Shown: positions 1,287 through 14,979 of the stretch, piece by piece | Layout of the letters: every line of letters begins with the position of its first letter | Numbering within the stretch: position 1 is the first letter of the stretch | From: Pseudomonadota bacterium | GTDB lineage: Bacteria > Pseudomonadota > Alphaproteobacteria > Rhodobacterales > Rhodobacteraceae | NCBI GenBank assembly: GCA_020161615.1 | Contig: JAIUPD010000004.1 | Span: 186,001-250,000, forward strand | DNA: 64,000 nucleotides | Direction of reading: 5' to 3' | Made by a program: the position numbers and the translations under genes | Notes under the pieces: generated by a model | Told to the model about the DNA's origin: nothing | The model's input: only the letters and a program-made list of their open reading frames with translations | The model's database searches: none

Positions 1287-1641
1287 GTCGGACCCCGTGC
1301 GTGCATGACGTGCGTGCGCTGAAGGCCGTCCCCCCGGGGGGGCGGCGCGCAAATTGAGGCGGGTTATAGCCAGAGGCCGGTCCGGCGCAAGCCCTGATCG
1401 GCGGGTGCGGCGCTTGCGGAGGGGGCGGAACCGGGGGGCCACCCCCCCCCAGCCGCGCCACGGGCGCGGCGTTCTCGGCTGAAACGTGCCACTGGCACGT
1501 TTCCGAGACGCCGATCACCCCCCGGCGTATTTAGGGCAGAATGAAGGGGCGGGTTTCCGCAGAGCAGGACGCGGCAGCGCAGCGTCATGGTTTCGTAACC
1601 CGGGCGAGCATCCTATCGTGGCGGCAAACCGGAGGGTGCGG
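1287..1641. other. Gene-free divergent spacer between carB and ackA-pduL
   Basis: This 355-bp spacer holds divergent promoters that I cannot place with confidence. It contains runs of C and G (1331-1343 and 1429-1449), a perfect 23-bp palindrome at 1481-1503, and a short AT-rich motif at about 1528-1549 (GTATTTAGGGCAGAATGAAG). A similar motif recurs near 30820. The ribosome-binding site GGAGG of the downstream gene is at 1631-1635. No convincing gene was seen. Confidence 0.6.
1481..1503. repeat. Perfect 23-bp palindrome (11-bp arms, 1-nt centre)
   Basis: The arms GAAACGTGCCA and TGGCACGTTTC flank a single C at 1492. It could be an operator or a dispersed intergenic palindrome. A related but shorter hairpin lies at 30845-30862, and both lie close to a TATTT...GAAG motif. 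Confidence 0.6.
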
Positions 1642-3444
1642 ATGCGGATTCTTGTCTTCAACGCAGGCAGTTCCAGCCTGAAATTTGGCGTCTTCGACCG
1701 GGCGCGCGGCCCGGGGCAGGAGGTCCGCCAGGTCCTCAAGGGTTCGTTCGACCGGTTCCGGGACGGGGGCTGCGAGGTGACATCGGAGGTGGGCGGCGCG
1801 CGCCGGAGCGGGACGGCGCCGCACGGGGATCTCGGCGCCGCCATCGCCGCCGTGCCCGGGTTGCTGGCGGCCGAGGGAATCGCCGGGATCGAGGCGGTCG
1901 GCCATCGCATCGCCCATGGCGGCCCCGATTTCACGGGTCCCGCCACGCTGGACGAGGCGACGCTGGCCTGGGTCGAGCGGCTGACGCCGCTGGCGCCACT
2001 GCACAACCCGGCCAATCTGCAGGCGGTGCGGGTGGCGCGGCAGGTCTGGCCGGATCTGCCGCAGGTCGGCGTCTTCGACACCAGTTTCCACCTGACCAAC
2101 CCGCCCCGTGTCACCACCTATGCCGTGCCCGAAAGCTGGCGCGCGGCGGGGCTGCGGCGCTACGGTTTCCACGGCACCAGTCACAAATACGTGGCGGAAC
2201 GCGCGGCCGAGGCTCTGGGCCAGCCGGTCACGGCGCTGAGGATCATCTCGGTCCATCTGGGCAACGGCGCCTCGGTCTGCGCCGTCAACCTTGGGCGCAG
2301 CCTCGAATCCTCGATGGGGCTGACGCCCTTGGAGGGGCTGGTGATGGGCACGCGCTCGGGCGATGTGGACCCGGGCGCCTTCGGCTATCTGCACCGGCAA
2401 TTGGAGCTCGGTATCGAGGAAATCGAGGCGGCGCTGAACCGCGACTCGGGGCTGAAAGGGCTGACCGGCTCGTCTGACATGCGCGATGTCGAGGATCGCG
2501 CGGCGGCGGGCGACGGGGCGGCGCAGCTGGCCATCAACCTCTATGCCCACCGGGCGCGCAAATACGTCGGGGCCTATGCGGCGGCGATGGGGGGCGTCGA
2601 TGCGGTCGTCTTCACCGGCGGTATCGGCGAGAATTCCCCCTCGATGCGGCGGCGGATCTGCGACGGGCTGGAGTTCATGGGGCTGCGGCTCGATTTCGAC
2701 CGCAATCAGGCGGTGGACCTGAAGGACCGCGCCGCGCCGCAGATCCAGGCTTATGGCTCGCGCGTGGCGGTGCTGGTCACGGAAACCGCCGAGCAATTGC
2801 AGATCGCCCGCGAGGTGGCGCAGCATCTGGCCCGGCCCGCCGCCGCGCCGAAGCCCATTCCCGTGGCGGTTTCCGGGCGGCATGTGCATCTGGCGGCGGA
2901 CAGCCTCGCCGCGCTTTTCGGCCCGGGCTATGACCTGACGGTGAAGAAGGCGCTGCGCCAGCCCGGCAATTGGGCGGCCGAGGAGCGGGTCACGCTGGTC
3001 GGTCCCAAGGGGCGGATCGAGAATGTGGCGATCCTCGGCCCCCTCAGGAAGCGCACGCAGATCGAGGTCTCGCGCACCGACAGTTTCGCGCTGGGCATCG
3101 ACGCGCCGGTGCGGGATTCCGGGCAACTCGATGGGACGCCGATGATCCGGCTGATCGGACCCCACGGGCAGATCGACACCGACGGGCTGATCGTTGCCGC
3201 CCGCCATATCCACATGAACCCGGCCGATGCGCAGGCGATGGGGCTTGAGGACGGGCAGATCGTCGGCGTGAAGGTCGGGCAGGGGGAACGCTCGCTGACC
3301 TTCGGGCGCACGCTGATCCGTATCCAGCCCAATGCCTTCACCGAGATGCATATCGACACCGACGAGGCCAATGCCGCCGGGATCGGCGCGGGCTGGGAAG
3401 GCGAGATCGTCGAGCTGGAGGCGCATCTCGATCCCGGCGCCTGA
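1642..3444 (+). CDS. ackA: Fused acetate kinase - PduL-type phosphotransacylase
   Basis: The protein is 600 aa. Residues 1 to about 395 are an acetate/propionate kinase: MRILVFNAGSSSLKFGVF at the start, HNPANLQAV, VGVFDTSFH, YGFHGTSHKYV, HLGNGASVCAV and FTGGIGENS. Residues from about 404 to the end are a PduL-type phosphate acyltransferase, with the two metal-binding histidine motifs GRHVHL (about 411) and ARHIHM (about 519). Together they should interconvert acyl-CoA, acyl phosphate and acetate (or propionate), making ATP. Usually these are two genes, and no separate pta or pduL is in the window. The ATG at 1642 was chosen because GGAGG lies 6 nt upstream and the kinase motif starts at residue 1. 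No bacterial-microcompartment genes are nearby and no encapsulation peptide is apparent. Confidence 0.93.
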   Translation: MRILVFNAGSSSLKFGVFDRARGPGQEVRQVLKGSFDRFRDGGCEVTSEVGGARRSGTAPHGDLGAAIAAVPGLLAAEGIAGIEAVGHRIAHGGPDFTGPATLDEATLAWVERLTPLAPLHNPANLQAVRVARQVWPDLPQVGVFDTSFHLTNPPRVTTYAVPESWRAAGLRRYGFHGTSHKYVAERAAEALGQPVTALRIISVHLGNGASVCAVNLGRSLESSMGLTPLEGLVMGTRSGDVDPGAFGYLHRQLELGIEEIEAALNRDSGLKGLTGSSDMRDVEDRAAAGDGAAQLAINLYAHRARKYVGAYAAAMGGVDAVVFTGGIGENSPSMRRRICDGLEFMGLRLDFDRNQAVDLKDRAAPQIQAYGSRVAVLVTETAEQLQIAREVAQHLARPAAAPKPIPVAVSGRHVHLAADSLAALFGPGYDLTVKKALRQPGNWAAEERVTLVGPKGRIENVAILGPLRKRTQIEVSRTDSFALGIDAPVRDSGQLDGTPMIRLIGPHGQIDTDGLIVAARHIHMNPADAQAMGLEDGQIVGVKVGQGERSLTFGRTLIRIQPNAFTEMHIDTDEANAAGIGAGWEGEIVELEAHLDPGA

Positions 3445-3483
3445 CGTCTTGCGGGGCGGGCGCCGGCATGGAACAAAGGGCCT

Positions 3484-3620
3484 GTTCTCAGGGCGGGGCG
3501 AAATTCCCCACCGGCGGTAAGCGGCCGAAACCGCAAGCCCGCGAGCGCCTGCCTTCGGGCGGGGTCAGCAGATCAGGTGCGATTCCTGGGCCGACGGTCA
3601 TAGTCCGGATGAAAGAGAAC
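3484..3620 (+). promoter_or_regulatory. FMN riboswitch (RFN element)
   Basis: The conserved RFN core is present in order: GTTCTCAGGGCGGGG, then ACCGGCGGTAA, AGCCCGCGAGCGCC, GGTCAGCAGATCAGGTG, the CCGACGGTCATAGTCCGG block and GAAAGAGAAC. Helix P1 pairs GTTCTC (3484-3489) with GAGAAC (3615-3620). It lies 72 bp before ribH. There is no hairpin with a T-run before the ribH ATG, so control of translation initiation is more likely than termination (inference). Confidence 0.96.
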
Positions 3621-3692
3621 CATCGCCTCCCGTGTCTGGCACGCGGGGGTGCATGGGATCGCCTTGGGTGACGTGTCGCTAGAGGAGAGACC

Positions 3693-4127
3693 ATGACACA
3701 CACCCGTTACGCCTTTGTCAAAGCCGGTTGGCATGCCGCCATCGTCGACCGCGCGCTCGAAGGATTTCTTCAGATCATCCCCGCCGAACAGGTCGATGTC
3801 GTCGACGTGCCCGGCGCCTTCGAGATGCCGTTGATGGCCCGCGATCTGGCAGCGAGTGGGCGCTATGCCGCCGTGGCCTGCGCCGCCTTCGTGGTGGATG
3901 GCGGTATCTATCGGCACGATTTCGTGGCGCAGGCGGTGGTCAGCGGCCTGATGCAGGCGGGGCTGGAGACGGGGGTGCCGGTGCTCTCGGTCTCGCTGAC
4001 GCCGCACCAGTATCAGGAGACGGCGCATCACGATGCCATCTATCGCGCGCATTTCGTGCAGAAGGGGCGCGAGGCGGCCGAGGCGGCGCTGAAGATCACC
4101 GCGGCGCGGCAGGCTTTGCCCGCCTGA
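3693..4127 (+). CDS. ribH: 6,7-dimethyl-8-ribityllumazine synthase (RibH2 type)
   Basis: The enzyme condenses 5-amino-6-ribitylamino-uracil with 3,4-dihydroxybutanone 4-phosphate, the penultimate step of riboflavin synthesis. The protein is 144 aa. AFVKAGWHAAIVD, DVPGAFEMPL, FVVDGGIYRHDFVA, GVPVLSVSLTPH and a late AHF...AAEAAL helix match the Brucella RibH2 (decameric) branch rather than the icosahedral RibH1 type. RBS AGAGGAG lies at 3681-3687. It is monocistronic under the FMN riboswitch at 3484-3620. The other riboflavin genes are not nearby, so this is probably the second, FMN-regulated lumazine synthase of the genome (inference). Confidence 0.95.
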   Translation: MTHTRYAFVKAGWHAAIVDRALEGFLQIIPAEQVDVVDVPGAFEMPLMARDLAASGRYAAVACAAFVVDGGIYRHDFVAQAVVSGLMQAGLETGVPVLSVSLTPHQYQETAHHDAIYRAHFVQKGREAAEAALKITAARQALPA

Positions 4128-5151: not shown

Positions 5152-5180
5152 CGAAAACGGCGGGGACCTGCCCCGCCGTT
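5152..5180 (-). terminator. Rho-independent terminator of the TRAP/catabolic operon
   Basis: AACGGCGGGG (5156-5165) pairs with CCCCGCCGTT (5171-5180) around a 5-nt loop, followed on the minus strand by TTTTCGT. It lies 9 bp beyond the stop of the TRAP permease. Confidence 0.7.
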
Positions 5181-5188
5181 CCATGGTC

Positions 5189-7534
5189 TCACGCCGACAG
5201 GGCGCGGGGCCGGTTGCCGATATGGTGCCAGACCAGCAGCGCCACGCCGATCCCCACCGCAGGCAGTTGCAGCGCCGGATTGCCCGAGAGGACAAGGAGC
5301 GCCAGCGCCAGCCTGAGCCCCATCTCCCAGCCCGCCAGACGCCGCTGGTCGAACCGCGCGAGCGCGCTGGCCAGCAGGTACAGCGACAGGCCCAGCCGCG
5401 CCAGCAGCCACAGCAGCGGCAGCAGGTGGAACTCGCCGTCATAGCCCGGCAGGAACCGCGCCCCGCCGGTGGCGGCGTCGGGGTTCAGGACCGCGGCCTG
5501 GACCAGCAGGATCTCAGGGTTGAAGGCGAAGATGAACGGGATCACGAACATCACGATCCCCGAGCGCACCGCCGAGAACGAGGTTCCCACCGGATCCGAC
5601 TTGGCGATGGTCGAGGCCGCGTAGGAGGCGACGGCGACGGGTGGTGTGATGGCGCTGACGCAGGCGAAGTAGAAGATGAACATATGCGCGGTGAAATGCG
5701 CCATGCCCAGCCCCACCAGCAGCGGCCCCATCAGCAGCGCCGCGTTCACATAGGCCGGAACCGCCGGCATCCCCATGCCCAGCAGGATCGCCAGCACCAT
5801 CGTCACCCCCAGCGCCACGAACTGGAACAGCAGGGGGGCGTTGTCGCCGAGGTTCATCGCCCGCAGCCAGCCGAGGATATCGAGCGCGATGAAACTGGGC
5901 AGGGCGGTCAGGTTGAGGCTGATGTCGATGACCGAAACGGCAAGGAACATGAGGTACAGCCCGGCCGAGGTGATGCCGGCCTGGGCCAGCGCGTCGATCA
6001 GTTTCGACGGGGTCTCGCGGAAGGCGCGGTCGATGAACAGCAAGCCCATCAGCACCACCGCCGCCCACCAGCCGACACTGCCCGCGTCGCCCAGCGTGTT
6101 CTGGATCAGCTGCATGATCCAGGGCAGTTGCTCGGCCCGGCAGGCGCCGCTGGCCATCTCGACCGCGACAGCGCCCAGCAGCCGGCTCAGGGGATCGCAG
6201 CCGATGGCGTCCTTGGGCACCAGCAGCAGCACGATGATCAGCGCCAGCGGCACGGCGATCTGGCTCAGCAGCAACAGGTCGCGACGGGTGAGGCGCATCT
6301 CGGGCGGGACCTCGCCCACGGCCTCGATCCCCTGCTTCCGCGACTGGAACATGACCGACAGGAACATGCAGACGAAATAGGCCACTGCCGGGATCGCCGC
6401 AGCGATGGCCACGTCGCGGTAGGGCACGCCGGTCATCGCCGCCAGCACGAAGGCGGCGATGCCCATGATCGGCGGCATCACCTGCCCGCCGGACGAGGCG
6501 GCGGCCTCGATCCCCGCGGCATAGCTTTTCTTGAAGCCCGCGCGGATCATCATCGGGATGGTGATGGTGCCGGTGCCCAGCACATTGACCACCGGTGTCC
6601 CGGTCGTGGTGCCGAAAAGCGCCGAGGCGACGATGGCGGAATGGGCCGAGCCCCCCCTCAGGCGCCGGGTCGAGACGACCGCAACCTTGATCAGCGTGCG
6701 CCCGCCCGCCGAGACGGAGAGCAGCGAGCCCAGCACGATATAGGGAAAGACCGTGTTCAGCATGATATGCAGGAACTGGCCCAGAAGGCCCGAGCCCTGG
6801 TTGACCAGCAGGTCCTGAACCCGCGGTCGTCCGTCCAACAGCGTTCGCGGCTCACCTCCCAGCGCGGTGATGAGATAGCGATTCATCCCTTGGGTGCCGA
6901 AGACGTACCAGATGGTCACCGTGGCGATGGCATAGAGCGCCAGCGCGATGGAGACGAGGACCAGCGAGAAACCCCAGACCTGCGTGTTGTAGGCCAGGAA
7001 GACGATCACGGCGAGGCCGACGATCAGGGTGATCCAGGGGCCCGTGGTGGCGATGCAGCGCGGGTTGTCGATCGAGGTCGGGGCGGGCAGGCCCAGGGCC
7101 AGCGCCACCTCGCGCTCGGCGGCCAGCGCGCGTTCCATCAAGGCCGCGCGTTCGCCGGTGATCACGTCGATCAGGCAGACGGCCTCGTTCTCGATCAGAT
7201 AGGTGGTGGCGATGGTCAGCGCGGCCACGACCAGCGCGATGTCCAGCGCCAGCCCCAGCCGGCGGCGGGCCTTGCCCTTGTCCTGCCACTCGCGCCAGAT
7301 CGAATGCCAGAGCGCCACGATGATCATCATCCAGGCAAAGGCGATGGGGTAGTAATATTCATAGGGAAAGCGGCGCACCGCCAGCCAGTCCCAGCCGGTC
7401 AGATCCTGCCAGAACTGGTCCCAGCCCGGGATCGCCGGGGTGGAGTTGATCATGCCGGTGACCACGAAGATCAGGGCCATGGCATAGACGACCCGACGCA
7501 CGGCCGGGCGGATCTGGGGCGCTTCGGTTTCCAT
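5189..7534 (-). CDS. TRAP transporter fused permease (DctQ-DctM fusion, TAXI type)
   Basis: The 781-aa polytopic protein carries the small (4-TM) and large (about 12-TM) TRAP permease subunits on one chain, as is usual for TAXI-type systems. It starts METEAPQIRPAVRRVVYAMALI. DctM-like features include GTGTITIPMMIRAGFKK, SSGGQVMPPIMGIAAFVLA and GMGMPAVPAYVNAAL. It imports a substrate, probably an organic acid, across the inner membrane using an ion gradient. It is last in a leftward operon and 71 bp after the binding protein, from which it is separated by a 9-bp perfect hairpin. Gene context suggests an aromatic acid or related carboxylate as the cargo (inference). Confidence 0.94.
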   Translation of the reverse strand: METEAPQIRPAVRRVVYAMALIFVVTGMINSTPAIPGWDQFWQDLTGWDWLAVRRFPYEYYYPIAFAWMMIIVALWHSIWREWQDKGKARRRLGLALDIALVVAALTIATTYLIENEAVCLIDVITGERAALMERALAAEREVALALGLPAPTSIDNPRCIATTGPWITLIVGLAVIVFLAYNTQVWGFSLVLVSIALALYAIATVTIWYVFGTQGMNRYLITALGGEPRTLLDGRPRVQDLLVNQGSGLLGQFLHIMLNTVFPYIVLGSLLSVSAGGRTLIKVAVVSTRRLRGGSAHSAIVASALFGTTTGTPVVNVLGTGTITIPMMIRAGFKKSYAAGIEAAASSGGQVMPPIMGIAAFVLAAMTGVPYRDVAIAAAIPAVAYFVCMFLSVMFQSRKQGIEAVGEVPPEMRLTRRDLLLLSQIAVPLALIIVLLLVPKDAIGCDPLSRLLGAVAVEMASGACRAEQLPWIMQLIQNTLGDAGSVGWWAAVVLMGLLFIDRAFRETPSKLIDALAQAGITSAGLYLMFLAVSVIDISLNLTALPSFIALDILGWLRAMNLGDNAPLLFQFVALGVTMVLAILLGMGMPAVPAYVNAALLMGPLLVGLGMAHFTAHMFIFYFACVSAITPPVAVASYAASTIAKSDPVGTSFSAVRSGIVMFVIPFIFAFNPEILLVQAAVLNPDAATGGARFLPGYDGEFHLLPLLWLLARLGLSLYLLASALARFDQRRLAGWEMGLRLALALLVLSGNPALQLPAVGIGVALLVWHHIGNRPRALSA

Positions 7535-7550
7535 CGCTCGCTCGTGTCAG

Positions 7551-7583
7551 AAAGAAAGAGGGGCCTGCCCGGAAGCAGGCCCC
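7551..7583 (-). terminator. Intercistronic hairpin between TAXI binding protein and permease
   Basis: GGGGCCTGC (7560-7568) pairs perfectly with GCAGGCCCC (7575-7583). On the minus strand it is followed by TCTTTCTTTC. It probably attenuates read-through or protects the 3' end of the binding-protein mRNA, giving more binding protein than permease. Confidence 0.6.
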
Positions 7584-7605
7584 CGGGTCGATCACCGTCA
7601 GGCGA

Positions 7606-8649
7606 TCATTGGGCGCAATCGGGGACGTCGTAGCCCGCCTCTTCCCAGGCGCGGACGGCGCCGGGATGATAGCGGACCGGGTTCAGCCCGCACATGCCCG
7701 AGGCGACGGGATCGAGGTTCTCGAAGCCGACGTTGCGGGCGTAGAGGGCCTTTTCATAGATCTGGTCCAGCGTCTCGATATGGGCGCGGGTCAGTTGATA
7801 GGCCAGCTCCTCGTCCATCGCCGCGTTGACGCAATTGCCGCCGACCGAGCCGCGGGTGCGGAAGGCGCCGTCTTCGGACACGACATGTGCGTTCTCGCCC
7901 AGCGCGGCCATCTGTTCGGCGCTCAGGATGAAGGGGGCCGAGCCCGGCGCGGTCAGCACGCGCTGCACCGCCTCGCTTTCGAATTGCTCGATGGGGATCG
8001 AGTAGAAGTTCATCCGCCCGGCCGACAACGCCTGCAGCGGCCGGTCCGAGGGGATGTATTCCGGCAGCAGCGCCACATCGACCGAGCCTTCGGTAATCGT
8101 GGTCGCCATCTGCGACCAGTCGCTTTCCACGGCGGTGAAGCCAGTCCCGGCCTCGAGCCCGGTCATCACCTGGATGAGCGAGCGCGCTTCGTTGGTCGCG
8201 GCGCCGCGGGGCGGGCCGTCCAGCACGCGGCGGCCCACCAGATTGTCCCAGCCGGTGACGCCCGCCGTCTCGTATCCGTAAAGCGTGTAGGCGCCGAAGG
8301 AATAGGGGTAGAGGACGCGCAGATTGGCGGCCAGTTCAGCCCCCCGTTCCGCGCCGAGATCGGCGTAGGGGCCGACCCCGCGCGACATCAGGAACGGCAG
8401 GCTGAAGGGGCAGATGCCGATATCGGTGCGCCCCTCGGCCACCGCCTGCGTGGCGTTGACCCCGGTCTGGCCCAGGGTGATCTGGATATCGGCGATCCCG
8501 CGTTCCGAGGCCACTTCGGCCAGATGGGCGATGGTCAGATGGACCGCGACGCCGGGCGTCGAGGTCATCGCGGTCAGGTTCACCTGCGCCAGCGCCCCTT
8601 GGGCGCCGAGCGCAAGGGCGAGGGTCGCGGTCGTGGCCAGGGTCTTCAT
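7606..8649 (-). CDS. TAXI-family TRAP solute-binding protein
   Basis: The protein is 347 aa with a clear signal peptide (MKTLATTATLALALGAQGALA, cleavage near residue 22). The mature part has the TAXI fold features: an early TSTPGVAVHLTIAHLAEV, GQTGVNATQAVAEGRTDIG, YGYETAGVTGWDNLVGRRV and EGSVDVALLPEYIP. It should bind a substrate in the periplasm and deliver it to the fused permease at 5189-7534. The gene sits between a metallo-hydrolase gene and the permease gene in one leftward operon. The ligand is not predictable from sequence; the neighbouring O-demethylase and ring-cleaving dioxygenase point to a phenolic acid. Confidence 0.93.
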   Translation of the reverse strand: MKTLATTATLALALGAQGALAQVNLTAMTSTPGVAVHLTIAHLAEVASERGIADIQITLGQTGVNATQAVAEGRTDIGICPFSLPFLMSRGVGPYADLGAERGAELAANLRVLYPYSFGAYTLYGYETAGVTGWDNLVGRRVLDGPPRGAATNEARSLIQVMTGLEAGTGFTAVESDWSQMATTITEGSVDVALLPEYIPSDRPLQALSAGRMNFYSIPIEQFESEAVQRVLTAPGSAPFILSAEQMAALGENAHVVSEDGAFRTRGSVGGNCVNAAMDEELAYQLTRAHIETLDQIYEKALYARNVGFENLDPVASGMCGLNPVRYHPGAVRAWEEAGYDVPDCAQ

Positions 8650-8737
8650 GCATTCCTCCCTTGTAGTTGTGGTGTCGCCGCGGCTGCGGCCCCTTTCGTC
8701 TTTCCCGGCCGCGCCTCCTCGCGCGGGCGGGTGGTCG

Positions 8738-9631
8738 TCAGCGCGCCGGGTGGCGGTAGGGTTCGATCGAGATGTTGCGCCCGATGCGGATGGTCATCAG
8801 GTCTTCGGCGATCAGCACAATCCCGTCGTATTCCGCCGCCAATTCGCCCAGCACATCGTCCATCGGCAAAGGATCGGGCGGCAGCAGCGCCAGATGGGTG
8901 AGCATGGCCAGGCGCGGCTTGGTCTGGGCGAAGACCTTGCCCACATCGGTGGGCGAGGCGTGGTGGTCGATGGCCACCTTTACCTTGGGGTAATTGGCCA
9001 GCGTCGTGTCGCGGGCGGCGGCGATTTCATGCACGAAGACATCCGCACCCTTCGCCTGGGCGATCAGGTTCTCATTATAGCGGGTGTCGTGGGAATGGAC
9101 GAAGACGCGGCCCTTGTATTCCACCCGGAAGCCATAGGCCGAGGGGATGTTGTCGCCGTGATCCACCAGGATCGCCCGGATCACCAGCCCGCCGCGGTCA
9201 TAGACCACGCCCTCGGTATAGACATGCGGGATGATGCGCATGTGCTCGGGGTCGATCTCGTTGTCGTTGACGCGGATGTTGCGGTCGGGGCGGGTGGCCT
9301 GCCAGGCGCCCTCGGCCAGATCCTCCAGCCCCTCGGGGCCATAGACGGTCAGCGGCTTGCCGCGCCCGGCCCAGCCCTGTGGAATGGTGCCCGACATGAG
9401 CAGGTCGAAGATCCCGGCATAATGGTCGGAATGGTAATGCGACAGGATCACCGTATCGACATAGCCGACCGGGATGCCCAGCTGCGACATGCGGATCACC
9501 GTGCCGCGGCCGCAATCGATCATCACCTTCTCGCCGCCCGCCTCGATCAGGGTCGAGGTGCCGAAGGCATGGATGCTGGGGTTCGGGATGCCGGTGCCCA
9601 GCAGGGTCACTTTCAGCACATCGTCATTCAT
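8738..9631 (-). CDS. MBL-fold metallo-hydrolase
   Basis: The 297-aa protein has the metallo-beta-lactamase metal motif HYHSDH (His65, His67, Asp69, His70), further metal ligands in VHEIAAARDT and DHHASPTDVG, and an N-terminal LLGTGIPNPS strand-turn as in RNase Z/arylsulfatase-like members. There is no signal peptide, so it is cytoplasmic. It is in the leftward operon 26 bp after the CoA-transferase gene and before the TAXI transporter. A lactonase or (thio)ester hydrolase acting on a ring-cleavage product is a reasonable guess; the family alone does not fix the substrate. Confidence 0.88.
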   Translation of the reverse strand: MNDDVLKVTLLGTGIPNPSIHAFGTSTLIEAGGEKVMIDCGRGTVIRMSQLGIPVGYVDTVILSHYHSDHYAGIFDLLMSGTIPQGWAGRGKPLTVYGPEGLEDLAEGAWQATRPDRNIRVNDNEIDPEHMRIIPHVYTEGVVYDRGGLVIRAILVDHGDNIPSAYGFRVEYKGRVFVHSHDTRYNENLIAQAKGADVFVHEIAAARDTTLANYPKVKVAIDHHASPTDVGKVFAQTKPRLAMLTHLALLPPDPLPMDDVLGELAAEYDGIVLIAEDLMTIRIGRNISIEPYRHPAR

Positions 9632-9656
9632 CTCGTTTCTCCTCCCGCAGCCCGGT

Positions 9657-10799
9657 TCAGGACCGGCTGCCGGTCTTCAATTCGCGGCGGATCTCGTCGC
9701 CATGGGCATCCAGCAGCGGCGGCGGGGTCAGGTCGCGTTCGGCCTCGCCATCGAAGCTGTAGGGGGCGCGGACCGTGGTGAAGGTCTCGTCCGCGACGCC
9801 CGGCACGGTCAGCTTGATGCCGAGGTGTCTGGCCTGCGGATCCTCCAGCGCCTCGTTGCTGTCATAGGCGGGGGAATAGGGCACGCCCGCTTCCTCCAGC
9901 GCGGCGCACCATTCGGCGCGGGTCTTCTGCGCAAAGACCGGGGCAAAGACGGCGATCAGCTCTTCTTGATGCTTGATGCGTTCAAGGCGTTCGTTGAAGC
10001 GCGGGTCCTCGTTCAGGGCCTGCATCCCGGTCGCTTCCAGCAGCCCCTCCCAGAATTTGACGGGCGAGGAGAGGTGGAAAGCGATCCAGGTCCCGTCGGC
10101 GCATTTGAACGTGTAGCTTTGCGACACGACCGGGCGCGACAGCGGGCCCATGATCTCGCCCACGCTATAATAGTGCGTGAAGCTGTCGAGGTTGAAGTGG
10201 CACATGGCCTCGAGCATCGAGATGTCGATGCGGCGCCCCTTGCCCGAAGACGCGCGTTCGGTCAGCGCCGCCAGCACCGCCATCGCCGCGTATTGGCCGG
10301 TCACGGCGTCGGCGATGGCCGGGCCGATGACGCGGGGGTTGTCGGGGGGTGTCAGCAGCCGCAGATAGCCCGCCGCCGCCTGGGCCACGGAATCGAAGGT
10401 TGGCCGCTTCATCGCCGGACCCGAGGGGCCGAAGCCCGAGATCGCGCAATAGATCAGGTCGGGCTTGATCGCCCTCAGCGCCGCCTCGCCCGCGCCCAGC
10501 TTCTCGGCCACGCCGGGGCGGAAGTTCTGGATGAAGACGTCCGCCGTGGCGATCAGCTGGTGAAAGGTTTCCAGATCCTCGGGCTGCTTGGTGTCCAGCG
10601 CGATGGAGCGCTTGTTGCGGTTGTAGGTCTGGTAATGCGGCGAATAGAGCCCGCCCTTGAAGGCGCGGAACGGGTCGCCCGTGCCCGGCAGTTCCACCTT
10701 GATCACATCGGCGCCCAGGTCGCCCAGATGCATCGCCGCGGCGGGGCCGGTGATATAGGTGCCCAGCTCGACGACGCGGATGTTCTTCAGGATCTTCAT
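9657..10799 (-). CDS. CaiB/BaiF class III CoA-transferase
   Basis: The protein is 380 aa, the usual length for formyl-CoA transferase-like enzymes. Family features are RVVELGTYITGPAAAMHLGD, GADVIKVELPGTGDPFR, QNFRPGVAEKLGAG and GPAIADAVTGQYAAM, whose Asp164 is probably the catalytic acyl-carrying residue. It moves CoA between carboxylic acids. Its stop overlaps the upstream lyase gene by 4 nt in ATGA arrangement: this gene's ATG is at 10797-10799 and the lyase stop at 10796-10798. The pairing suggests that the CoA ester made here is cleaved by the citrate-synthase-like lyase (inference). Confidence 0.92.
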   Translation of the reverse strand: MKILKNIRVVELGTYITGPAAAMHLGDLGADVIKVELPGTGDPFRAFKGGLYSPHYQTYNRNKRSIALDTKQPEDLETFHQLIATADVFIQNFRPGVAEKLGAGEAALRAIKPDLIYCAISGFGPSGPAMKRPTFDSVAQAAAGYLRLLTPPDNPRVIGPAIADAVTGQYAAMAVLAALTERASSGKGRRIDISMLEAMCHFNLDSFTHYYSVGEIMGPLSRPVVSQSYTFKCADGTWIAFHLSSPVKFWEGLLEATGMQALNEDPRFNERLERIKHQEELIAVFAPVFAQKTRAEWCAALEEAGVPYSPAYDSNEALEDPQARHLGIKLTVPGVADETFTTVRAPYSFDGEAERDLTPPPLLDAHGDEIRRELKTGSRS

Positions 10800-11608
10800 A
10801 CCTTGTCCTCCGCCGGGGCCTCGTGGCCCGACAGCAGGCCGTCGTAGGAAATCGCCAGATCGGCATGGTTCGACATGACAAAGCCGATGGACCGCAGCGA
10901 TTCCTCGTAAAGATGCGCCGAAAGCCCGGCGGTCCGGGCCAGCAGCGGCACCGCCTTCAGCGCCTCCAGCGGCCAGCCCGCATCCAGGATCGCGGCCGGG
11001 ATCGCGCCCGAGACGTTGATCGGCAGCGGCCGGTGCATGATGCCCGGCGCCTGCTCGCCCAGAATGCGCAGGGTTTCGACATAGCGGCCGCTGAGGCCGA
11101 GGTCGTCGCAGAGTTCCAGCAGCCGGATGGCCCGCGGATCGCCCTCGGCATGCTGCGGATGGCCGAGGCCCGGCACCTTCTTGCGCTCGATCTTCAGCTG
11201 GGTGACGTGATCCTGGGCCGAGGCGGCGATGTCGCCGTCCTTGGCGTCGCTGAGGACCTGATGCAGGAATTGTCCCGCCGTCTCGGTCGAGCCCGCCACC
11301 ACACTGCCCATGCCCAGCAGGCCCGCCGCCATGGCGCCCTGCCAGGCCTCGGGGCCCGCGGCAAGGGTCATGCGCGCGGCCTGCACGCTGGGCACCAGCC
11401 CGTGTTCGGCGATGGCCACCAGGCAGGCGTCCAGCATCCGGCGCTGGGCCTCGGTCGGCATGTCGCCGATCACCAGCAGCCAGAAGTAATCGGTAAAGCC
11501 GATCTTGCCGATCAGGTCATGGCAGAGGTCGCGGCCGCGTACCGTGATGGAATGGGCGTCCGAGGTGGCGATGGCCGTGTAGGGCTGGTTTTGTTTTCCG
11601 ATCCGCAT
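10796..11608 (-). CDS. Citrate-synthase-like protein, probable citryl-CoA-lyase-type C-C lyase
   Basis: The protein is 270 aa, much shorter than citrate synthase (about 430 aa) and close to stand-alone citryl-CoA lyase modules. HGLVPSVQAARM matches the citrate-synthase core, and GLGHPQH (His150) matches the conserved GxGH loop. By eye, the first catalytic histidine of citrate synthase (usually LHGGANE) reads VVAGSTE and the late NVDFY reads SAHLYEE, which fits lyase-type rather than synthase-type members. It probably cleaves or forms a 3-hydroxy-acyl-CoA resembling citryl- or citramalyl-CoA. It is first in the leftward operon, with a putative IclR operator immediately upstream (11618-11632). 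Confidence 0.8.
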   Translation of the reverse strand: MRIGKQNQPYTAIATSDAHSITVRGRDLCHDLIGKIGFTDYFWLLVIGDMPTEAQRRMLDACLVAIAEHGLVPSVQAARMTLAAGPEAWQGAMAAGLLGMGSVVAGSTETAGQFLHQVLSDAKDGDIAASAQDHVTQLKIERKKVPGLGHPQHAEGDPRAIRLLELCDDLGLSGRYVETLRILGEQAPGIMHRPLPINVSGAIPAAILDAGWPLEALKAVPLLARTAGLSAHLYEESLRSIGFVMSNHADLAISYDGLLSGHEAPAEDKV

Positions 11609-11616
11609 CTCTAATC

Positions 11617-11632
11617 TTTTCGCATTGCGAAA
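11617..11632. promoter_or_regulatory. Putative IclR operator, copy 1
   Basis: TTTCGCATTGCGAAA (11618-11632) has 7-bp arms around one central base. It lies 9 bp before the lyase ATG, overlapping its leader, inside the divergent spacer shared with the dioxygenase gene. An identical 15-mer precedes the LigM-like gene at 13496-13510. Confidence 0.75.
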
Positions 11633-11723
11633 TATTTTTCTCTTGCCGAAGCGTAAGCGCGCGGCTTAGGCTTCGTCAAGCCACTTTGTGGGCGGATCGG
11701 ACGCGAGGCGCGGGAGGGACAGC

Positions 11724-12581
11724 ATGAGCGACGTGAACCAATACACCATCACCCAGGCGGTGAAGGATTCCTTCAAGACCGAGCCGGGCAGCCGGTTCGA
11801 ATCGCTGCTGCAGGGGCTGATCGAGCATCTGCACGATTTCACCCGCGAGCAGAACGTCACCCACGAGGAATGGATGGCGGCGCTGATGTTCCTCTACGAT
11901 TGCGGGAAGATCTCGACGCCCGAGCGGCACGAATTCATCCTGCTCTCCGACGTGCTGGGCTGGTCGGCGCTGGTCGACATGATCAACACCAAGGGCGGCG
12001 CGACCGAGGGGTCGAACCTCGGGCCCTTCTACCTCGACAACGCGCCGGCCAAGGCTTTGGGCGCGGATCTGGGCGACGGACGGGATGGCGTCACGCTGCT
12101 GGTCCACGGCCGGGTGATGGACACGCTGAAGAACCCGCTGCCCGGCGCGCAGGTCGATACCTGGCAGGCTGACGGCGCCGGAACCTATCCGATCCAGGAG
12201 GAGGGGCAGGACAAATACGACCTGCGCGGCAAGTTCACGGTCGATGATCAGGCGCGCTATTATTACACCACCGTCCTGCCCAAGCCCTATACCGTGCCCT
12301 ATGACGGTCCGGTCGGCGTGTTGCTCAGGGCGGGCAACCGCCACGCCTGGCGCGCGCCGCATCTGCATTTCATCGTCACCGCCCCGGGCATGTCCGGCAT
12401 CACCACCGAGGTCTTCTTCAAGAACACCGATTACGTCGACAATGACGCGGTGTTCGGCGTGCGCCGCTCGCTGATTCGCGACATCAAGCCCGCGCGCAAC
12501 ATCGAGGCTTTGGGCTATGCCCTCGACAAGAGGCCCGATGCCGTGGTCGAAATGGATTTTGTTCTGGCACCGGAAGGGTGA
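11724..12581 (+). CDS. Intradiol ring-cleavage dioxygenase (hydroxyquinol/catechol 1,2-dioxygenase family)
   Basis: The 285-aa protein has the dioxygenase N-terminal helical domain (residues 20-105, with HEFILLSDVLGWSALVD and GATEGSNLGPFY) and the intradiol beta-sandwich. The Fe(III) ligands can be assigned as Tyr155 (GTY), Tyr189 (PKPY), His213 and His215 (APHLHF), with Arg210 nearby. It opens an ortho-dihydroxylated aromatic ring between the hydroxyls using O2. It resembles hydroxyquinol 1,2-dioxygenases more than protocatechuate enzymes. ATG 11724 follows GGGAGGG at 11713-11719. It is divergent from the lyase operon and 6 bp ahead of the IclR gene. The substrate could be hydroxyquinol or a related polyphenol. 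Confidence 0.92.
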   Translation: MSDVNQYTITQAVKDSFKTEPGSRFESLLQGLIEHLHDFTREQNVTHEEWMAALMFLYDCGKISTPERHEFILLSDVLGWSALVDMINTKGGATEGSNLGPFYLDNAPAKALGADLGDGRDGVTLLVHGRVMDTLKNPLPGAQVDTWQADGAGTYPIQEEGQDKYDLRGKFTVDDQARYYYTTVLPKPYTVPYDGPVGVLLRAGNRHAWRAPHLHFIVTAPGMSGITTEVFFKNTDYVDNDAVFGVRRSLIRDIKPARNIEALGYALDKRPDAVVEMDFVLAPEG

Positions 12582-12587
12582 GGCGGT

Positions 12588-13391
12588 TTGGACGAGGAAA
12601 GCGAAAGACCGGCGGGCTTTGTCGAGGCGCTGGCCAAGGGGATCGCCATCCTCGAAGCCTTCGACGCCCGCCATAACGAGATGACCCTTTCCGAGGTGGC
12701 GCGGCGGGTGAATGTCTCGCCCGCGGCGGCGCGGCGGGGTCTGATCACGCTGATCGAGCTGGGCTATGTCGGCCAGAGTGGCAAGCGCTTTCACCTCAAG
12801 CCGAAGGTGATGGCGCTGGGCTCGTCCTTCTATTTCGCCGCGCGGGTGGATGAGATCATCCTGCCCGACCTGCGCCGGCTGGTGGAGATGTTCGGCGATG
12901 CCTCGTCCGTGGGGACGCTGAACGACCACAACGTGATCTATGTCGCGCATTACTCGCAGCAGCGGGCAAGGCGGGCCTCGGCCGTGGCCGGGGCGAGCTA
13001 TCCGGCCTTTGCCACGTCGATCGGCCGGGTGCTGGTGGCGGGGCTGCCGGACGCCGCGCTCGATGCCTGGCTGGACGCGCTGGAGCCCGTGCCGCTGACC
13101 GCGCGCACCCTGGTCGACAAGGCCGCGCTGAGGGCGGAAATTCTGGCGGTGCGCCAGCAGGGCTATGCCACGACGGTGGACCAGCTGGATTACGGGATCA
13201 CCGCGCTGGCGGTGCCCATCGTCAACGAGGAAGGGCGCACCATCGCCGCCGTCAACAGCTCGGGCTATTCCGGGATGCTGTCGCCCGAGGCGCTGGTCGC
13301 CGAGCGGCTGGGCGAGTTGCGGGCGGTGGCCAAGTCCATTGCCCTGCAGCTGACCCGCTTTCCGACGCTGCGCGCGGTCCTCGACAATTGA
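12588..13391 (+). CDS. IclR-family transcriptional regulator
   Basis: The 267-aa protein has a winged helix-turn-helix at residues 12-75 (LSEVARRVNVSPAAARRGLITL) and a C-terminal effector-binding domain (YPAFATSIGRVLVAGL, DYGITALAVPIVN). It most resembles the PcaR/PobR branch that senses aromatic acids. It begins with TTG at 12588, 6 bp after the dioxygenase stop, so the two are cotranscribed. The two identical palindromes at 11618-11632 and 13496-13510 are its likely binding sites, making it the local regulator of uptake, demethylation and ring cleavage (inference). Confidence 0.92.
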   Translation: MDEESERPAGFVEALAKGIAILEAFDARHNEMTLSEVARRVNVSPAAARRGLITLIELGYVGQSGKRFHLKPKVMALGSSFYFAARVDEIILPDLRRLVEMFGDASSVGTLNDHNVIYVAHYSQQRARRASAVAGASYPAFATSIGRVLVAGLPDAALDAWLDALEPVPLTARTLVDKAALRAEILAVRQQGYATTVDQLDYGITALAVPIVNEEGRTIAAVNSSGYSGMLSPEALVAERLGELRAVAKSIALQLTRFPTLRAVLDN

Positions 13392-13393
13392 GC

Positions 13394-13425
13394 GGGTGCC
13401 GGGAATTCCCGGCGCCCTTCCTTTT
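13394..13425 (+). terminator. Rho-independent terminator after the IclR gene
   Basis: GGGTGCCGGGAA and TTCCCGGCGCCC (13394-13417) form a near-perfect stem with one G:T pair, followed by TTCCTTTTC. It lies directly after the IclR stop and separates the dioxygenase-IclR unit from the LigM-like gene. Confidence 0.75.
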
Positions 13426-13494
13426 CGCCGGAGGCTTGGGGAATCAGGCTTGACGCCCCGGAATTCTCTGCGTTATTTTCGTAATAAGCAAGAA

Positions 13495-13511
13495 TTTTCG
13501 CATTGCGAAAA
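13495..13511. promoter_or_regulatory. Putative IclR operator, copy 2
   Basis: TTTTCGCATTGCGAAAA (17 bp, 8-bp arms) contains the same 15-mer as 11618-11632. It lies 36 bp before the LigM-like ATG. An additional imperfect repeat, TTATTTTCGTAATAA, lies just upstream at 13472-13488. Confidence 0.75.
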
Positions 13512-13547
13512 GATTGGCGATACCAGAGACCAGATCGGGAGGACCTG

Positions 13548-14927
13548 ATGAACAAACCCCACAGCCTTGCCCCCACGAGCCTGCAGGACGCGCTGGACGC
13601 GGCCGGCGGGCCGATCAACCTGCTGCGCAGCTCGCAGCTGGGCACGACGATCTTCCCGGGCATCCCGCCCGAGTTCACCAACTGGCGCGACGAACAGCGC
13701 GCCTGGAAGCACAGCGTGGCGATGCTCGAACAGAGCTATCACATGACCGAAGTGCATGTGCGCGGCGCCGATGCGCTGGCCTTCATGGCCGGGCTGATGA
13801 CCAACCGGGCCGATAATTTCGACGTGATGCGCGCCAAGCAGATCGTCATGTGCGGGCCGGATGGCCGGATGATCTCGGACGCGGTGCTGTTCCGTGAAGA
13901 GGCCGATTTCATGCGCGTGGTCGGTCCGCCCACGGCTGCCAACTGGGTCGAATACAACGCGACCAAGACTGACCTGAACGTCACCGTCACCCGGGATGAG
14001 AACTTCATCCGCCCCCGCGCGCGGCGCGATGTCTATCGTTTCCAGCTGCAGGGCCCGAACGCGCTGGCCCTGATGCAGGAGGTGACCGAGGGCACGCTGC
14101 CCGAGATCAAGTTCTTCCACATGGGCGCCTTCAAGATCGCCGGTTGCGACGTGCGCGCCGTGCGCCACGGCATGGCCAGCACCCCGGGATTCGAGCTGTA
14201 TGGCCCCTGGGAGGACCAGCAGGCGGTGCGCGAGGCGGTCGAGCGCGTGGGCGAGAAATACGACCTGCGCAAGGCGGGGTCGGTGACCTATGGCACCGCT
14301 GCACAGGAATCGGGTTGGATGCCGCGCCCCCTGCCCGCGATCTACGAGGGCGAGACCATGGCGGACTACCGCCGCTGGATCCCCGCGCAGAGCTTCGAGG
14401 CCGCGGGCTCGCTGGGCGGCAGCTTCGTCTCCGACCGGATCGAGGATTATTATGTCGAGCCCTATGAGGTGGGTTACGGCACGCTGGTGCATCTGGGCCA
14501 TGATTTCATCGGCCGCGACGCGCTGGTCGAGAAGAAGCAGACCCAGAAGCGCCGCAAGATGACGCTGATCTGGAACAACGACGACGTGTTCCGGGTGCTG
14601 CAGAACTCGCTCAGGAACGACGGGCCGCGGTCGAAATTCATCTCGCTGCCGGTGCCGATGTATTCCTCCTTCCAGGCCGATCAGGTGCTGGCGGGGGGCA
14701 AGCCCGCGGGCGTGTCGAACTGGATGAGCTATTCGTCCAACGCGGGCGCAATCCTGTCCACCGCGCTGATGGATCTGGAGCATTGCGAGATCGGCAAGGA
14801 AGTGACGCTCCTCTGGGGCGAGCCCGACAGCCGCCGCCGTACGGTCGAGGCGCATGAAGTGACCGAGATCCGCGCGACCATCGCCCCGGTGCCCTATTAC
14901 GCCAAGACCAACAAGACCGAGGGCTGA
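13548..14927 (+). CDS. ligM: LigM/DesA-like tetrahydrofolate-dependent aromatic O-demethylase (GcvT family)
   Basis: The 459-aa protein has the aminomethyltransferase (GcvT) fold and close likeness to LigM of Sphingobium: PEFTNWRDEQRAWKHSVA, HGMASTPGFELYGP, ESGWMPRPLPAIY, SLGGSFVSDRIEDYYV, GHDFIGRDAL and a C-terminal TIAPVPY. LigM moves the methyl group of vanillate or 3-O-methylgallate to tetrahydrofolate. The match spans the whole length, whereas GcvT itself is about 370 aa. ATG 13548 follows GGGAGGA at 13537-13543. It is the last rightward gene of the catabolic island and has its own operator-bearing promoter and a terminator. Other methylated substrates (for example dimethylglycine-like) are less likely given the ring-cleaving neighbour. 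Confidence 0.88.
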   Translation: MNKPHSLAPTSLQDALDAAGGPINLLRSSQLGTTIFPGIPPEFTNWRDEQRAWKHSVAMLEQSYHMTEVHVRGADALAFMAGLMTNRADNFDVMRAKQIVMCGPDGRMISDAVLFREEADFMRVVGPPTAANWVEYNATKTDLNVTVTRDENFIRPRARRDVYRFQLQGPNALALMQEVTEGTLPEIKFFHMGAFKIAGCDVRAVRHGMASTPGFELYGPWEDQQAVREAVERVGEKYDLRKAGSVTYGTAAQESGWMPRPLPAIYEGETMADYRRWIPAQSFEAAGSLGGSFVSDRIEDYYVEPYEVGYGTLVHLGHDFIGRDALVEKKQTQKRRKMTLIWNNDDVFRVLQNSLRNDGPRSKFISLPVPMYSSFQADQVLAGGKPAGVSNWMSYSSNAGAILSTALMDLEHCEIGKEVTLLWGEPDSRRRTVEAHEVTEIRATIAPVPYYAKTNKTEG

Positions 14928-14949
14928 TCCCCTCTCCTGTCTGACCTTG

Positions 14950-14979
14950 AAAGGCGGCCCCGAACCGGGCCGCCTTTTT
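14950..14979 (+). terminator. Rho-independent terminator after the LigM-like gene
   Basis: AAAGGCGGCCC (14950-14960) pairs with GGGCCGCCTTT (14967-14977), followed by TT. It lies between the convergent LigM-like and GT61 genes. Confidence 0.85.

What the first reader, a model, noticed from the sequence alone, without database searches (positions are those of the whole stretch)
5152..14979. Possible undescribed methoxyaromatic pathway: LigM-like O-demethylase and intradiol dioxygenase combined with CoA-transferase and citrate-synthase-like lyase
Seen: one leftward operon (lyase, CaiB/BaiF transferase, MBL hydrolase, TAXI binding protein, fused TRAP permease) divergent from dioxygenase-IclR, then a LigM-like gene, all enclosed by terminators. 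Known: LigM demethylates vanillate or 3-O-methylgallate; intradiol dioxygenases open the ring. Unusual: no maleylacetate reductase, muconate cycloisomerase or 3-oxoadipate CoA-transferase/thiolase is present. Instead a class III CoA-transferase is translationally coupled to a lyase-type citrate-synthase homologue. Inference: the ring-cleavage product is hydrated or hydrolysed to a citrate- or citramalate-like acid, converted to its CoA ester, then split to acetyl-CoA (or similar) and an oxo-acid, a lower pathway I do not recognise.
Basis: partly seen in the sequence, partly recalled or inferred. Interest (0 to 1): 0.72.

Follow-up and report, generated by a model that had tools for sequence, protein, structure and literature searches.

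The report
CoA-dependent route for opened aromatic rings
A block of genes that co-occurs in dozens of bacteria probably breaks down ring-opened (sometimes methoxylated) aromatic compounds by attaching coenzyme A and then splitting them with a citrate-synthase-like enzyme that has lost its usual catalytic residue, a route not found in the papers searched.

Summary
The eight genes are present, intact, at 5152-14979, and their neighbourhood recurs. Among 73 distinct fetched loci of the lyase homologue (chosen by similarity; window not counted), 33 with at least 64% lyase identity all have an IclR gene; 32 have CaiB and 31 a ring-cleavage dioxygenase (23 intradiol, 8 LigAB-type). A palindromic operator lies in the divergent lyase/dioxygenase promoter and upstream of the LigM-like gene; its exact AT-core form occurs nowhere else in the 4.87-Mb genome, and its half-sites stand upstream of the lyase in 31 of those 33 loci. 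LigM, dioxygenase and CoA genes thus look like one regulon.

Two first-reader assumptions weaken. The 'citryl-CoA lyase' belongs to a subfamily whose catalytic Asp is Ser, Asn or Thr (79 of 83 sequences). The LigM-like enzyme keeps Tyr247 but lacks Arg122, so vanillate and 3-O-methylgallate are unlikely substrates.

Best reading: a CoA-dependent lower pathway for hydroxyquinol/methoxyhydroquinone-type aromatics. Ring opening gives a C6 oxo-acid, CaiB makes its CoA ester, the lyase-fold enzyme cleaves it. Substrate and chemistry are inferred; many related loci lack any demethylase, so methoxy substrates may be lineage-specific.

The parts
5152..5178 (-). rho-independent terminator after the TRAP gene
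   Evidence: GC stem of 8 pairs, 5-nt loop, TTTT, read by eye; not listed by the scan
5189..7534 (-). fused TRAP transporter permease (781 aa)
   Evidence: PF06808 180 bits; TIGR02123 320.5 bits against cut-off 320.65
7559..7584 (-). hairpin with T-rich tail between TAXI and TRAP genes (possible attenuator)
   Evidence: terminator scan
7606..8649 (-). TAXI/NMT1-like periplasmic binding protein (347 aa)
   Evidence: PF16868 53 bits; TIGR02122 43.7 bits, below cut-off 84
8738..9631 (-). metallo-beta-lactamase-fold hydrolase (297 aa), HxHxDH present
   Evidence: PF12706; motif at residue 65
9657..10799 (-). class III (CaiB/BaiF) CoA-transferase (380 aa)
   Evidence: PF02515 340 bits; closest NCBIfam model succinate--glutarate CoA-transferase, 207 bits against cut-off 750
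10796..11608 (-). citryl-CoA-lyase-like protein of the Asp-less 'S-type' subfamily (270 aa)
   Evidence: NF004868 303.7 bits (cut-off 193); best fold match 6hxp; position of the catalytic Asp is Ser200
11618..11632 (.). palindromic operator TTTCGCATTGCGAAA in the divergent promoter
   Evidence: perfect half-sites upstream of the lyase in 31 of 33 close loci
11688..12581 (+). hydroxyquinol-type intradiol dioxygenase (297 aa)
   Evidence: PF00775+PF04444; nearest solved PnpC and hydroxyquinol 1,2-dioxygenases
12588..13391 (+). IclR-family regulator (PcaR/PcaU/PobR-like)
   Evidence: TIGR02431 226 bits, below cut-off 285
13394..13417 (+). terminator after the IclR gene
   Evidence: terminator scan
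13450..13479 (+). promoter-like site TTGACG-18-TATTTT upstream of LigM
   Evidence: 2 such sites found, 1.3 expected from shuffles, so weak alone; similar sequence upstream of four orthologues
13496..13510 (.). second copy of the operator, upstream of the LigM ATG
   Evidence: the only exact AT-core copies in the genome are this one and 11618
13548..14927 (+). LigM/DesA-like tetrahydrofolate-type O-demethylase homologue; ORF open from 13503, likely start ATG 13548
   Evidence: PF01571; DesA model 524 bits (cut-off 800), LigM model 471 bits (cut-off 580); Y247 kept, R122 is Pro
14953..14979 (+). terminator after LigM
   Evidence: 8-pair GC stem, 6-nt loop, TTTTT, read by eye; not listed by the scan

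Best explanation
A dedicated, probably substrate-induced catabolic regulon in which the ring-fission product of a polyhydroxylated aromatic is converted to its CoA thioester by the CaiB-type transferase and then split by a citrate-synthase-fold enzyme, in place of the reductase/CoA-transferase/thiolase or hydratase/aldolase steps of known lower pathways. Proposed order: TAXI-TRAP imports the substrate; the LigM-like enzyme removes an O-methyl group to tetrahydrofolate; the hydroxyquinol-type dioxygenase opens the ring; the MBL hydrolase acts on an ester, lactone or enol ether of the fission product; CaiB makes the CoA ester; the S-type lyase cleaves a C-C bond. Most likely substrates are methoxyhydroquinone-type compounds (2-methoxy- or 2,6-dimethoxy-hydroquinone or the quinone), giving maleylacetate or 2,4-dioxoadipate. 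Cleavage would then yield acetyl-CoA plus maleate/oxaloacetate, or malonyl-CoA plus pyruvate. Shown by computation: conserved gene set, shared operators, intact ORFs, loss of the lyase Asp/His. Inferred: substrate, order of steps, CoA ester and products.
For: Neighbourhood: among 33 close loci IclR 33, CaiB 32, ring-cleavage dioxygenase 31, TRAP 29; in the 15 loci of the remaining group, dioxygenase 11. A CoA-forming enzyme (CaiB or AMP-ligase) is found within 9.5 kb of the lyase in 71 of 73 loci, 68 of the 70 Asp-less ones. Parts are swapped while the core stays: intradiol or LigAB extradiol; LigM or MetE-like proteins keeping HxC...C; MBL, amidohydrolase or alpha/beta hydrolase; TAXI or DctPQM TRAP. 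Operators tie LigM to the operon. Hydroxyquinol-type substrate: dioxygenase homology with Fe ligands and the SDVLG segment kept; LigM lacks Arg122; FMN-reductase-family proteins (quinone reduction is inferred) in 23 of 33 and 8 of 11 loci; an FAD hydroxylase plus LeuCD beside intradiol dioxygenase, lyase and CaiB in Burkholderia glumae. A homologue of the genome's Fe-ADH (maleylacetate-reductase-like) lies in 1 of 77 neighbourhoods, beyond an oppositely oriented gene.
Against: Demethylases are not core: 15 of 33 close loci, 3 of 11, 14 of 15 and 10 of 11 in the other Asp-less groups have neither LigM nor a MetE/UroD-like gene, and LigM is in 5 of 33. No FMN-reductase gene is among the window's eight, and it is missing in the four sister loci L001, L002, L003, L019 and six others of the 33. 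LigAB-type enzymes are known (recalled) mostly for carboxylated catechols, and TRAP systems for carboxylates. The LigM-like genes near L021 and L096 keep Arg122. 11 Asp-less loci with an AMP-ligase have no dioxygenase, so the lyase is not tied to aromatics in every lineage; group II has a VOC protein of unknown role and no counted dioxygenase (one 29% LigAB hit in L043 fell below my cut-off). It is unexplained how a citrate-synthase fold cleaves C-C without the Asp; in human ACLY, D1026A gave no acetyl-CoA, though the authors ascribe this to allostery (passages of PMC10115795). Loci were picked by similarity to the window lyase, so the counts describe its near relatives. No expression or biochemical data.
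Confidence: 0.55

Rival explanations
1. Gallate/3-O-methylgallate-type route: the vicinal triol is opened to 4-oxalomesaconate (intradiol and extradiol cleavage give the same product), hydrated to the citrate analogue 4-carboxy-4-hydroxy-2-oxoadipate, activated by CaiB and split by the lyase.
For: Explains the swap of intradiol and LigAB extradiol enzymes and LeuCD or an amidohydrolase as hydratase; the closest demethylase models are DesA and LigM.
Against: Arg122 of LigM is Pro in the window enzyme; the dioxygenase is of the hydroxyquinol type; an aldolase would do the job without CoA; the lyase lacks the Asp and His positions used to handle the acetyl-CoA enolate.
Confidence: 0.2
2. The regulon is a composite: dioxygenase, IclR and LigM feed an ordinary lower pathway elsewhere in the genome (the Fe-ADH cluster on contig C3), while lyase, CaiB and TRAP use a separate imported hydroxy-acid, as the AMP-ligase clade may do.
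For: 11 Asp-less lyase loci have an AMP-ligase and no dioxygenase; the genome has a separate intradiol/Fe-ADH cluster.
Against: Dioxygenase-lyase linkage in 31 of 33 close loci and 11 of 15 others, with two dioxygenase classes; shared divergent promoter and operator; Fe-ADH homologue in 1 of 77 neighbourhoods.
Confidence: 0.15
3. Ordinary citryl-CoA lyase of a citrate or citramalate utilisation operon next to unrelated aromatic genes.
For: The NCBIfam subfamily model named citryl-CoA lyase is passed (303.7 against 193 bits); nearest solved fold is 6hxp.
Against: Catalytic Asp replaced by Ser, Asn or Thr in 79 of 83 sequences and the H274 position by V, I, F or L in 79 of 83 (the window and 4 duplicate loci are among the 83); dioxygenase linkage.
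Confidence: 0.05

Closest known systems
Citryl-CoA lyase of Hydrogenobacter thermophilus (6hxp) and the citrate-synthase module of ATP-citrate lyase
   Same: Fold and about 29% identity in the fold alignment (sequence alignment); the H238, H320, R329 and R401 positions of citrate synthase are kept
   Different: Catalytic Asp is Ser, the H274 position is Val, the residue after the GH motif is Pro, and there is no obvious R421 equivalent (numbering recalled)
Hydroxyquinol (hydroxyhydroquinone) pathway: hydroxyquinol 1,2-dioxygenase plus maleylacetate reductase
   Same: Intradiol dioxygenase of the hydroxyquinol type
   Different: No maleylacetate reductase or thiolase in the operon; CaiB and lyase-fold enzyme instead
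Syringate/vanillate catabolism of Sphingobium SYK-6 and Pseudomonas NGC7 (LigM/DesA or VanAB; LigAB/DesB or MgaAB; LigJ/GalB hydratase; LigK/GalC aldolase)
   Same: LigM/DesA-type protein; LigAB-type dioxygenase in related loci; hydrolase after ring cleavage (PMC12314914: outline with abstract, passages and section 12 seen)
   Different: No hydratase/aldolase pair among the eight genes; CoA activation; LigM substrate residues changed
CoA-dependent itaconate/citramalate degradation (CoA-transferase, hydratase, citramalyl-CoA lyase; recalled)
   Same: Logic of CoA-transferase followed by a C-C lyase
   Different: A CitE-type lyase there, an Asp-less citrate-synthase fold here; ring-cleavage dioxygenase is part of the unit

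Membership tests
Citryl-CoA lyase | Citrate-synthase fold and family model | tested here: met
   NF004868 303.7 bits above 193; best Foldseek match 6hxp, E 1.7e-11, TM 0.76, rmsd 8.6, on a model of mean pLDDT 79, pTM 0.75
Citryl-CoA lyase | Catalytic Asp (D375 of pig citrate synthase, D1026 of ACLY; numbering partly recalled) | tested here: not met
   Ser200 in the window; S 67, N 8, T 4, D 4 of 83 sequences
Citryl-CoA lyase | Citryl-CoA cleavage activity | not testable with these tools
   needs enzyme assay
LigM/DesA O-demethylase | Score above the NCBIfam equivalog cut-off | tested here: not met
   DesA 524 of 800, LigM 470.6 of 580
LigM/DesA O-demethylase | Catalytic Tyr247 (recalled role) | tested here: met
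   Tyr in SVTYGT aligned to RAYPSN
LigM/DesA O-demethylase | Arg122 binding the substrate carboxylate (recalled role) | tested here: not met
   VGP in the window and four orthologues against VGR in LigM; DesA itself was not aligned
Hydroxyquinol 1,2-dioxygenase | Two Tyr and two His iron ligands | tested here: met
   aligned (ligand positions recalled)
Hydroxyquinol pathway | Maleylacetate reductase in the gene cluster | tested here: not met
   none among the eight genes; homologue of the genome's Fe-ADH in 1 of 77 neighbourhoods, behind an oppositely oriented gene
Gallate / protocatechuate 4,5-cleavage pathway | Oxalomesaconate hydratase and aldolase in the cluster | tested here: not met
   no such family among the eight genes; the rest of the genome was not searched for them
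Class III CoA-transferase | CoA_transf_3 domain over the whole protein | tested here: met
   PF02515 340 bits, residues 4-366

The most novel reading that the evidence does not exclude
A citrate-synthase-fold enzyme has exchanged its acetyl-CoA enolisation machinery (Asp and His lost) for a new reaction: hydrolytic retro-Claisen cleavage of 2,4-dioxoadipyl-CoA or maleylacetyl-CoA. The well-stabilised pyruvate enolate, or acetyl-CoA, would leave. This makes a CoA-dependent lower pathway for 2,6-dimethoxybenzoquinone/methoxyhydroquinone-type lignin products, with LeuCD acting as a maleate hydratase in the non-methoxylated version.
Probability: 0.2. Interest if true: 0.82.

Novelty: new variant of a known kind. 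Interest (0 to 1): 0.62.

Why it matters
Bacterial ring-cleavage products are known to enter metabolism by a handful of lower pathways. A recurrent CoA-transferase plus Asp-less citrate-synthase-fold step in Alpha-, Beta- and Gammaproteobacteria would be another, relevant to methoxylated lignin products. It would also correct a set of automatic 'citryl-CoA lyase' annotations and give a clear case of a lost catalytic residue in a central enzyme fold.

Tried and rejected
Considered and rejected: ordinary citryl-CoA lyase (Asp lost); vanillate or 3-O-methylgallate as LigM substrate (Arg122, Tyr29 and Tyr31 changed); coupling to a maleylacetate reductase (homologue of the genome's own Fe-ADH, itself only maleylacetate-reductase-like, in 1 of 77 neighbourhoods and there behind an oppositely oriented gene). 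The single-genome pattern control (reversed pattern: 3 hits) shows that two GC-core matches outside the locus are probably chance. The 3-mismatch operator scan reported 19 of 100 shuffles with at least 2 matches, so that call alone is weak; the support is the exact identity of both copies and the conservation.

Literature: ten keyword searches answered. One search, for 'citryl-CoA lyase' with 'ring-cleavage dioxygenase', gave 0 papers. None of the titles and abstract starts listed showed this gene combination, but only part of the matches was listed in three calls (15 of 89, 12 of 256, 6 of 9), and most subscription journals are not in that library, so absence from print is not proved. Of the papers, passages were seen of PMC6628648, PMC11837543 and PMC10115795; a term search of PMC6888825 found nothing. 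The LigM structure paper was not held, so residue roles for LigM and citrate-synthase numbering are recalled.

Limits: my gene calling in high-GC loci was a simple codon-bias method and missed genes, so partner counts come from tblastn with reference proteins within 9.5 kb and at least 33% identity. The loci scored are a choice by similarity to the window lyase: 25 of 25, 16 of the 135 plasmid records (8 of the 16 without annotation), 11 of the 16 non-own genomes and 25 of the 46 non-own places; the unfetched ones are mostly more distant. Before counting, 4 of 77 loci (98% or more lyase identity to another) were dropped. The 64% group border was set by me, loci are not phylogenetically independent, and one close fragment (L112) fell into group III. 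In one search a script stopped half-way on an orientation check; one search repeated it in full.

Full report
Observation. The transferase and lyase frames overlap by four bases. The leftward unit (lyase, CaiB, MBL, TAXI, TRAP) ends at a terminator at 5178-5152 (read by eye). The rightward dioxygenase-IclR unit ends at one at 13394-13417, and LigM at one at 14953-14979 (read by eye); the two read by eye are not in the list of the consensus scan. LigM probably starts at ATG 13548 rather than at the TTG at 13503. No maleylacetate reductase, cycloisomerase, thiolase, hydratase or aldolase family is among the eight genes.

Conservation. A scan of GTDB genomes with the lyase gave 25 loci. Plasmid records (135 with a match, 40 listed) and two genome searches added more: 17 of 398 Pseudomonadota genomes and 42 of 394 genomes of the family have a match at E <= 1e-30, the window's own included in both. 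The one other genome of the window's genus (G609) has none. Partner genes were scored by tblastn in 77 fetched loci, 73 of them distinct; the window itself is not among them. Group I (33 loci, lyase at least 64% identical to the window): IclR 33 (in L013 7.9 kb away), CaiB 32, intradiol dioxygenase 23, LigAB-type extradiol 8 (either one 31), TRAP 29, MetE/UroD-like 14, LigM 5 (either one 18), amidohydrolase 22, FMN-reductase-like 23, MBL 4, FAA-hydrolase-like 7. Group II (11; Sphingopyxis, Niveispirillum, Steroidobacteraceae and other Gammaproteobacteria among the named, the rest unnamed): CaiB 11, VOC protein 10, MetE/UroD-like 8, FMN reductase 8, LeuC 1, no intradiol or LigAB gene counted (one 29% LigAB hit in L043 is below the cut-off). 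Group III (15, mixed alpha- and betaproteobacterial and unnamed): any CoA-forming enzyme 14, dioxygenase 11, LeuC 5, demethylase-like 1. Group IV (11): AMP-ligase 11, dioxygenase 0. Three distant loci keep the canonical Asp. The window's own genome carries 3 PF00775 and 5 PF02900 genes in 4.87 Mb, so about 3% of 19-kb stretches would hold one by chance; I ran no random-locus control.

Modules are exchanged around a constant lyase-CaiB-IclR core: the dioxygenase class (intradiol, or LigAB-type extradiol in Rhizobiales and one Rhodobacteraceae-family genome, L096); the demethylase candidate (LigM, or MetE/UroD-fold proteins that keep HxC...C; that this is the MetE zinc site is recalled); the hydrolase (MBL, amidohydrolase, alpha/beta hydrolase, CocE-like); and the transporter (TAXI with fused TRAP, DctPQM, TonB receptor). 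In Burkholderia glumae one gene string holds intradiol dioxygenase, lyase, an MhpA-like FAD hydroxylase, CaiB and LeuCD. Cupriavidus necator N-1 has lyase, AMP-ligase and intradiol dioxygenase, with CaiB, HMG-CoA-lyase-like and LeuCD genes nearby.

Regulation. The palindrome TTTCGCATTGCGAAA occurs exactly in the lyase/dioxygenase promoter (11618-11632) and upstream of the LigM ATG (13496-13510) and nowhere else in the window with up to three mismatches (two matches at that looseness are not rare in shuffles, 19 of 100). In the whole genome TTTCG-N5-CGAAA has four sites; the two with an AT core are these two, and the reversed control pattern has three. Perfect half-sites lie within 200 bases upstream of the lyase in 31 of 33 group I loci (33 of 33 with at most one mismatch), against 36 perfect sites anywhere in the 627,287 bases of these loci. 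The four sister loci L001, L002, L003 and L019 repeat the second site upstream of LigM. It follows a TTGACG-TATTTT-like promoter, consistent with repression by the IclR protein (inference). So LigM very likely belongs to the regulon in this lineage.

The lyase. It passes the NCBIfam 'citryl-CoA lyase' subfamily model, and an AlphaFold model (best mean pLDDT 79, pTM 0.75, the other four models 67-72; 24-sequence alignment) matches 6hxp best. But the catalytic Asp, in the NVDG motif of 6hxp and ATP-citrate lyase, is Ser200. Of 83 sequences (window and 4 duplicates included), 67 have Ser, 8 Asn, 4 Thr and only 4 Asp. The position of the acetyl-CoA-binding His (H274 of citrate synthase, recalled numbering) is V, I, F or L in 79 of 83 and His in 4. 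The H238, H320, R329 and R401 equivalents are kept in 82, 83, 83 and 83 of 83. PDB titles show an archaeal D541A and a human D1026A ATP-citrate lyase, the former with citryl-CoA bound (that D541 is the same Asp is inferred). In human ACLY, wild type but not D1026A formed acetyl-CoA, which the authors ascribe to an allosteric effect (passages of PMC10115795). Normal citryl-CoA cleavage is therefore unlikely; a CoA substrate remains likely because 68 of the 70 Asp-less loci pair the gene with a CoA-transferase or ligase.

The demethylase and dioxygenase. The LigM-like protein aligns with LigM over its length and keeps Tyr247, but Arg122 is Pro and Tyr29/Tyr31 are Thr/Phe (residue roles recalled). 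Against a general rule, the more distant LigM-like proteins near L021 and L096 keep the Arg. The genome holds five such genes in all; of the four others two keep the Arg and two do not. The dioxygenase is closest to hydroxyquinol-type enzymes.

Mechanism. Best reading: a methoxyhydroquinone- or hydroxyquinol-type ring is demethylated where needed, opened, made into a CoA ester by CaiB and split by the S-type lyase. A ring that carries both the vicinal triol and the 1,2,4 pattern (from 2,6-dimethoxyhydroquinone) would explain several things at once: why intradiol and extradiol enzymes can replace each other, why FMN/quinone-reductase-like proteins and unrelated hydrolases accompany the core, and why the product (2,4-dioxoadipate) would give oxaloacetate plus acetyl-CoA, or pyruvate plus malonyl-CoA. 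The six loci with LeuC (five with LeuD too) have no counted demethylase and would be the non-methoxylated form giving maleate (inference; LeuCD-type maleate hydratases are recalled). Against it: many loci without LeuC also lack a counted demethylase (15 of 33 in group I), and the window and its sisters lack the FMN reductase. The gallate-type rival explains the dioxygenase swap equally well and is weakened mainly by the lost Arg122 and the dioxygenase type.

Novelty. None of ten keyword searches of the open-access library listed this combination (only listings seen, three of them partial); the direct pair 'citryl-CoA lyase' and 'ring-cleavage dioxygenase' gave 0 papers. The closest described systems are the hydroxyquinol pathway and the syringate/vanillate routes (PMC12314914: outline with abstract, passages and section 12 seen). 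The unit is filed as a new variant of a known kind, aromatic catabolic clusters, with an unusual enzyme subfamily at its centre.

Noticed in passing
window 1486-3444 (+): Acetate kinase fused to a PduL-type phosphotransacylase (PF00871 + PF06130 in one 652-aa frame), a possible bifunctional acetate/acetyl-CoA enzyme upstream of the finding.
   Followed up: partly
window 3480-3624 (+) and 3693-4127 (+): FMN riboswitch (109 bits) directly upstream of a lumazine synthase homologue (PF00885).
   Followed up: partly
window genome G000, loci L135, L136, L137 (contigs C1 and C9): Four further LigM/DesA-like genes; those in L135 and L136 lie near TRAP genes, one (L136) also near another MBL-fold gene, the two in L135 near a YCII and a PcaD-like gene, and the one in L137 near an AMP-ligase-like gene: a rich demethylase set.
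   Followed up: partly
L039, L044, L045, L094, L113-L119: Asp-less 'citryl-CoA lyase' paired with an AMP-ligase and no counted dioxygenase; L113 also has an isochorismatase-family gene, L039 a PEP-mutase-family gene, L094 a VOC protein. Perhaps another CoA-ester cleavage pathway.
   Followed up: partly
L016, L017, L021, L043, L084-L089: Small VOC (glyoxalase-fold) protein near the lyase and CaiB in 10 of 11 group II loci; may be a ring-cleavage enzyme or an epimerase.
   Followed up: no
L139 (G000:C3:276500-296000): Separate cluster with two intradiol dioxygenases, an FAD monooxygenase-like gene, Fe-ADH (maleylacetate-reductase-like) and BCAA-type ABC transporter.
   Followed up: partly
L024 about 10821-12001: The CaiB homologue matches in two separate pieces (79% and 73% identity), as if interrupted by a frame change or sequencing error; left as it is.
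   Followed up: no
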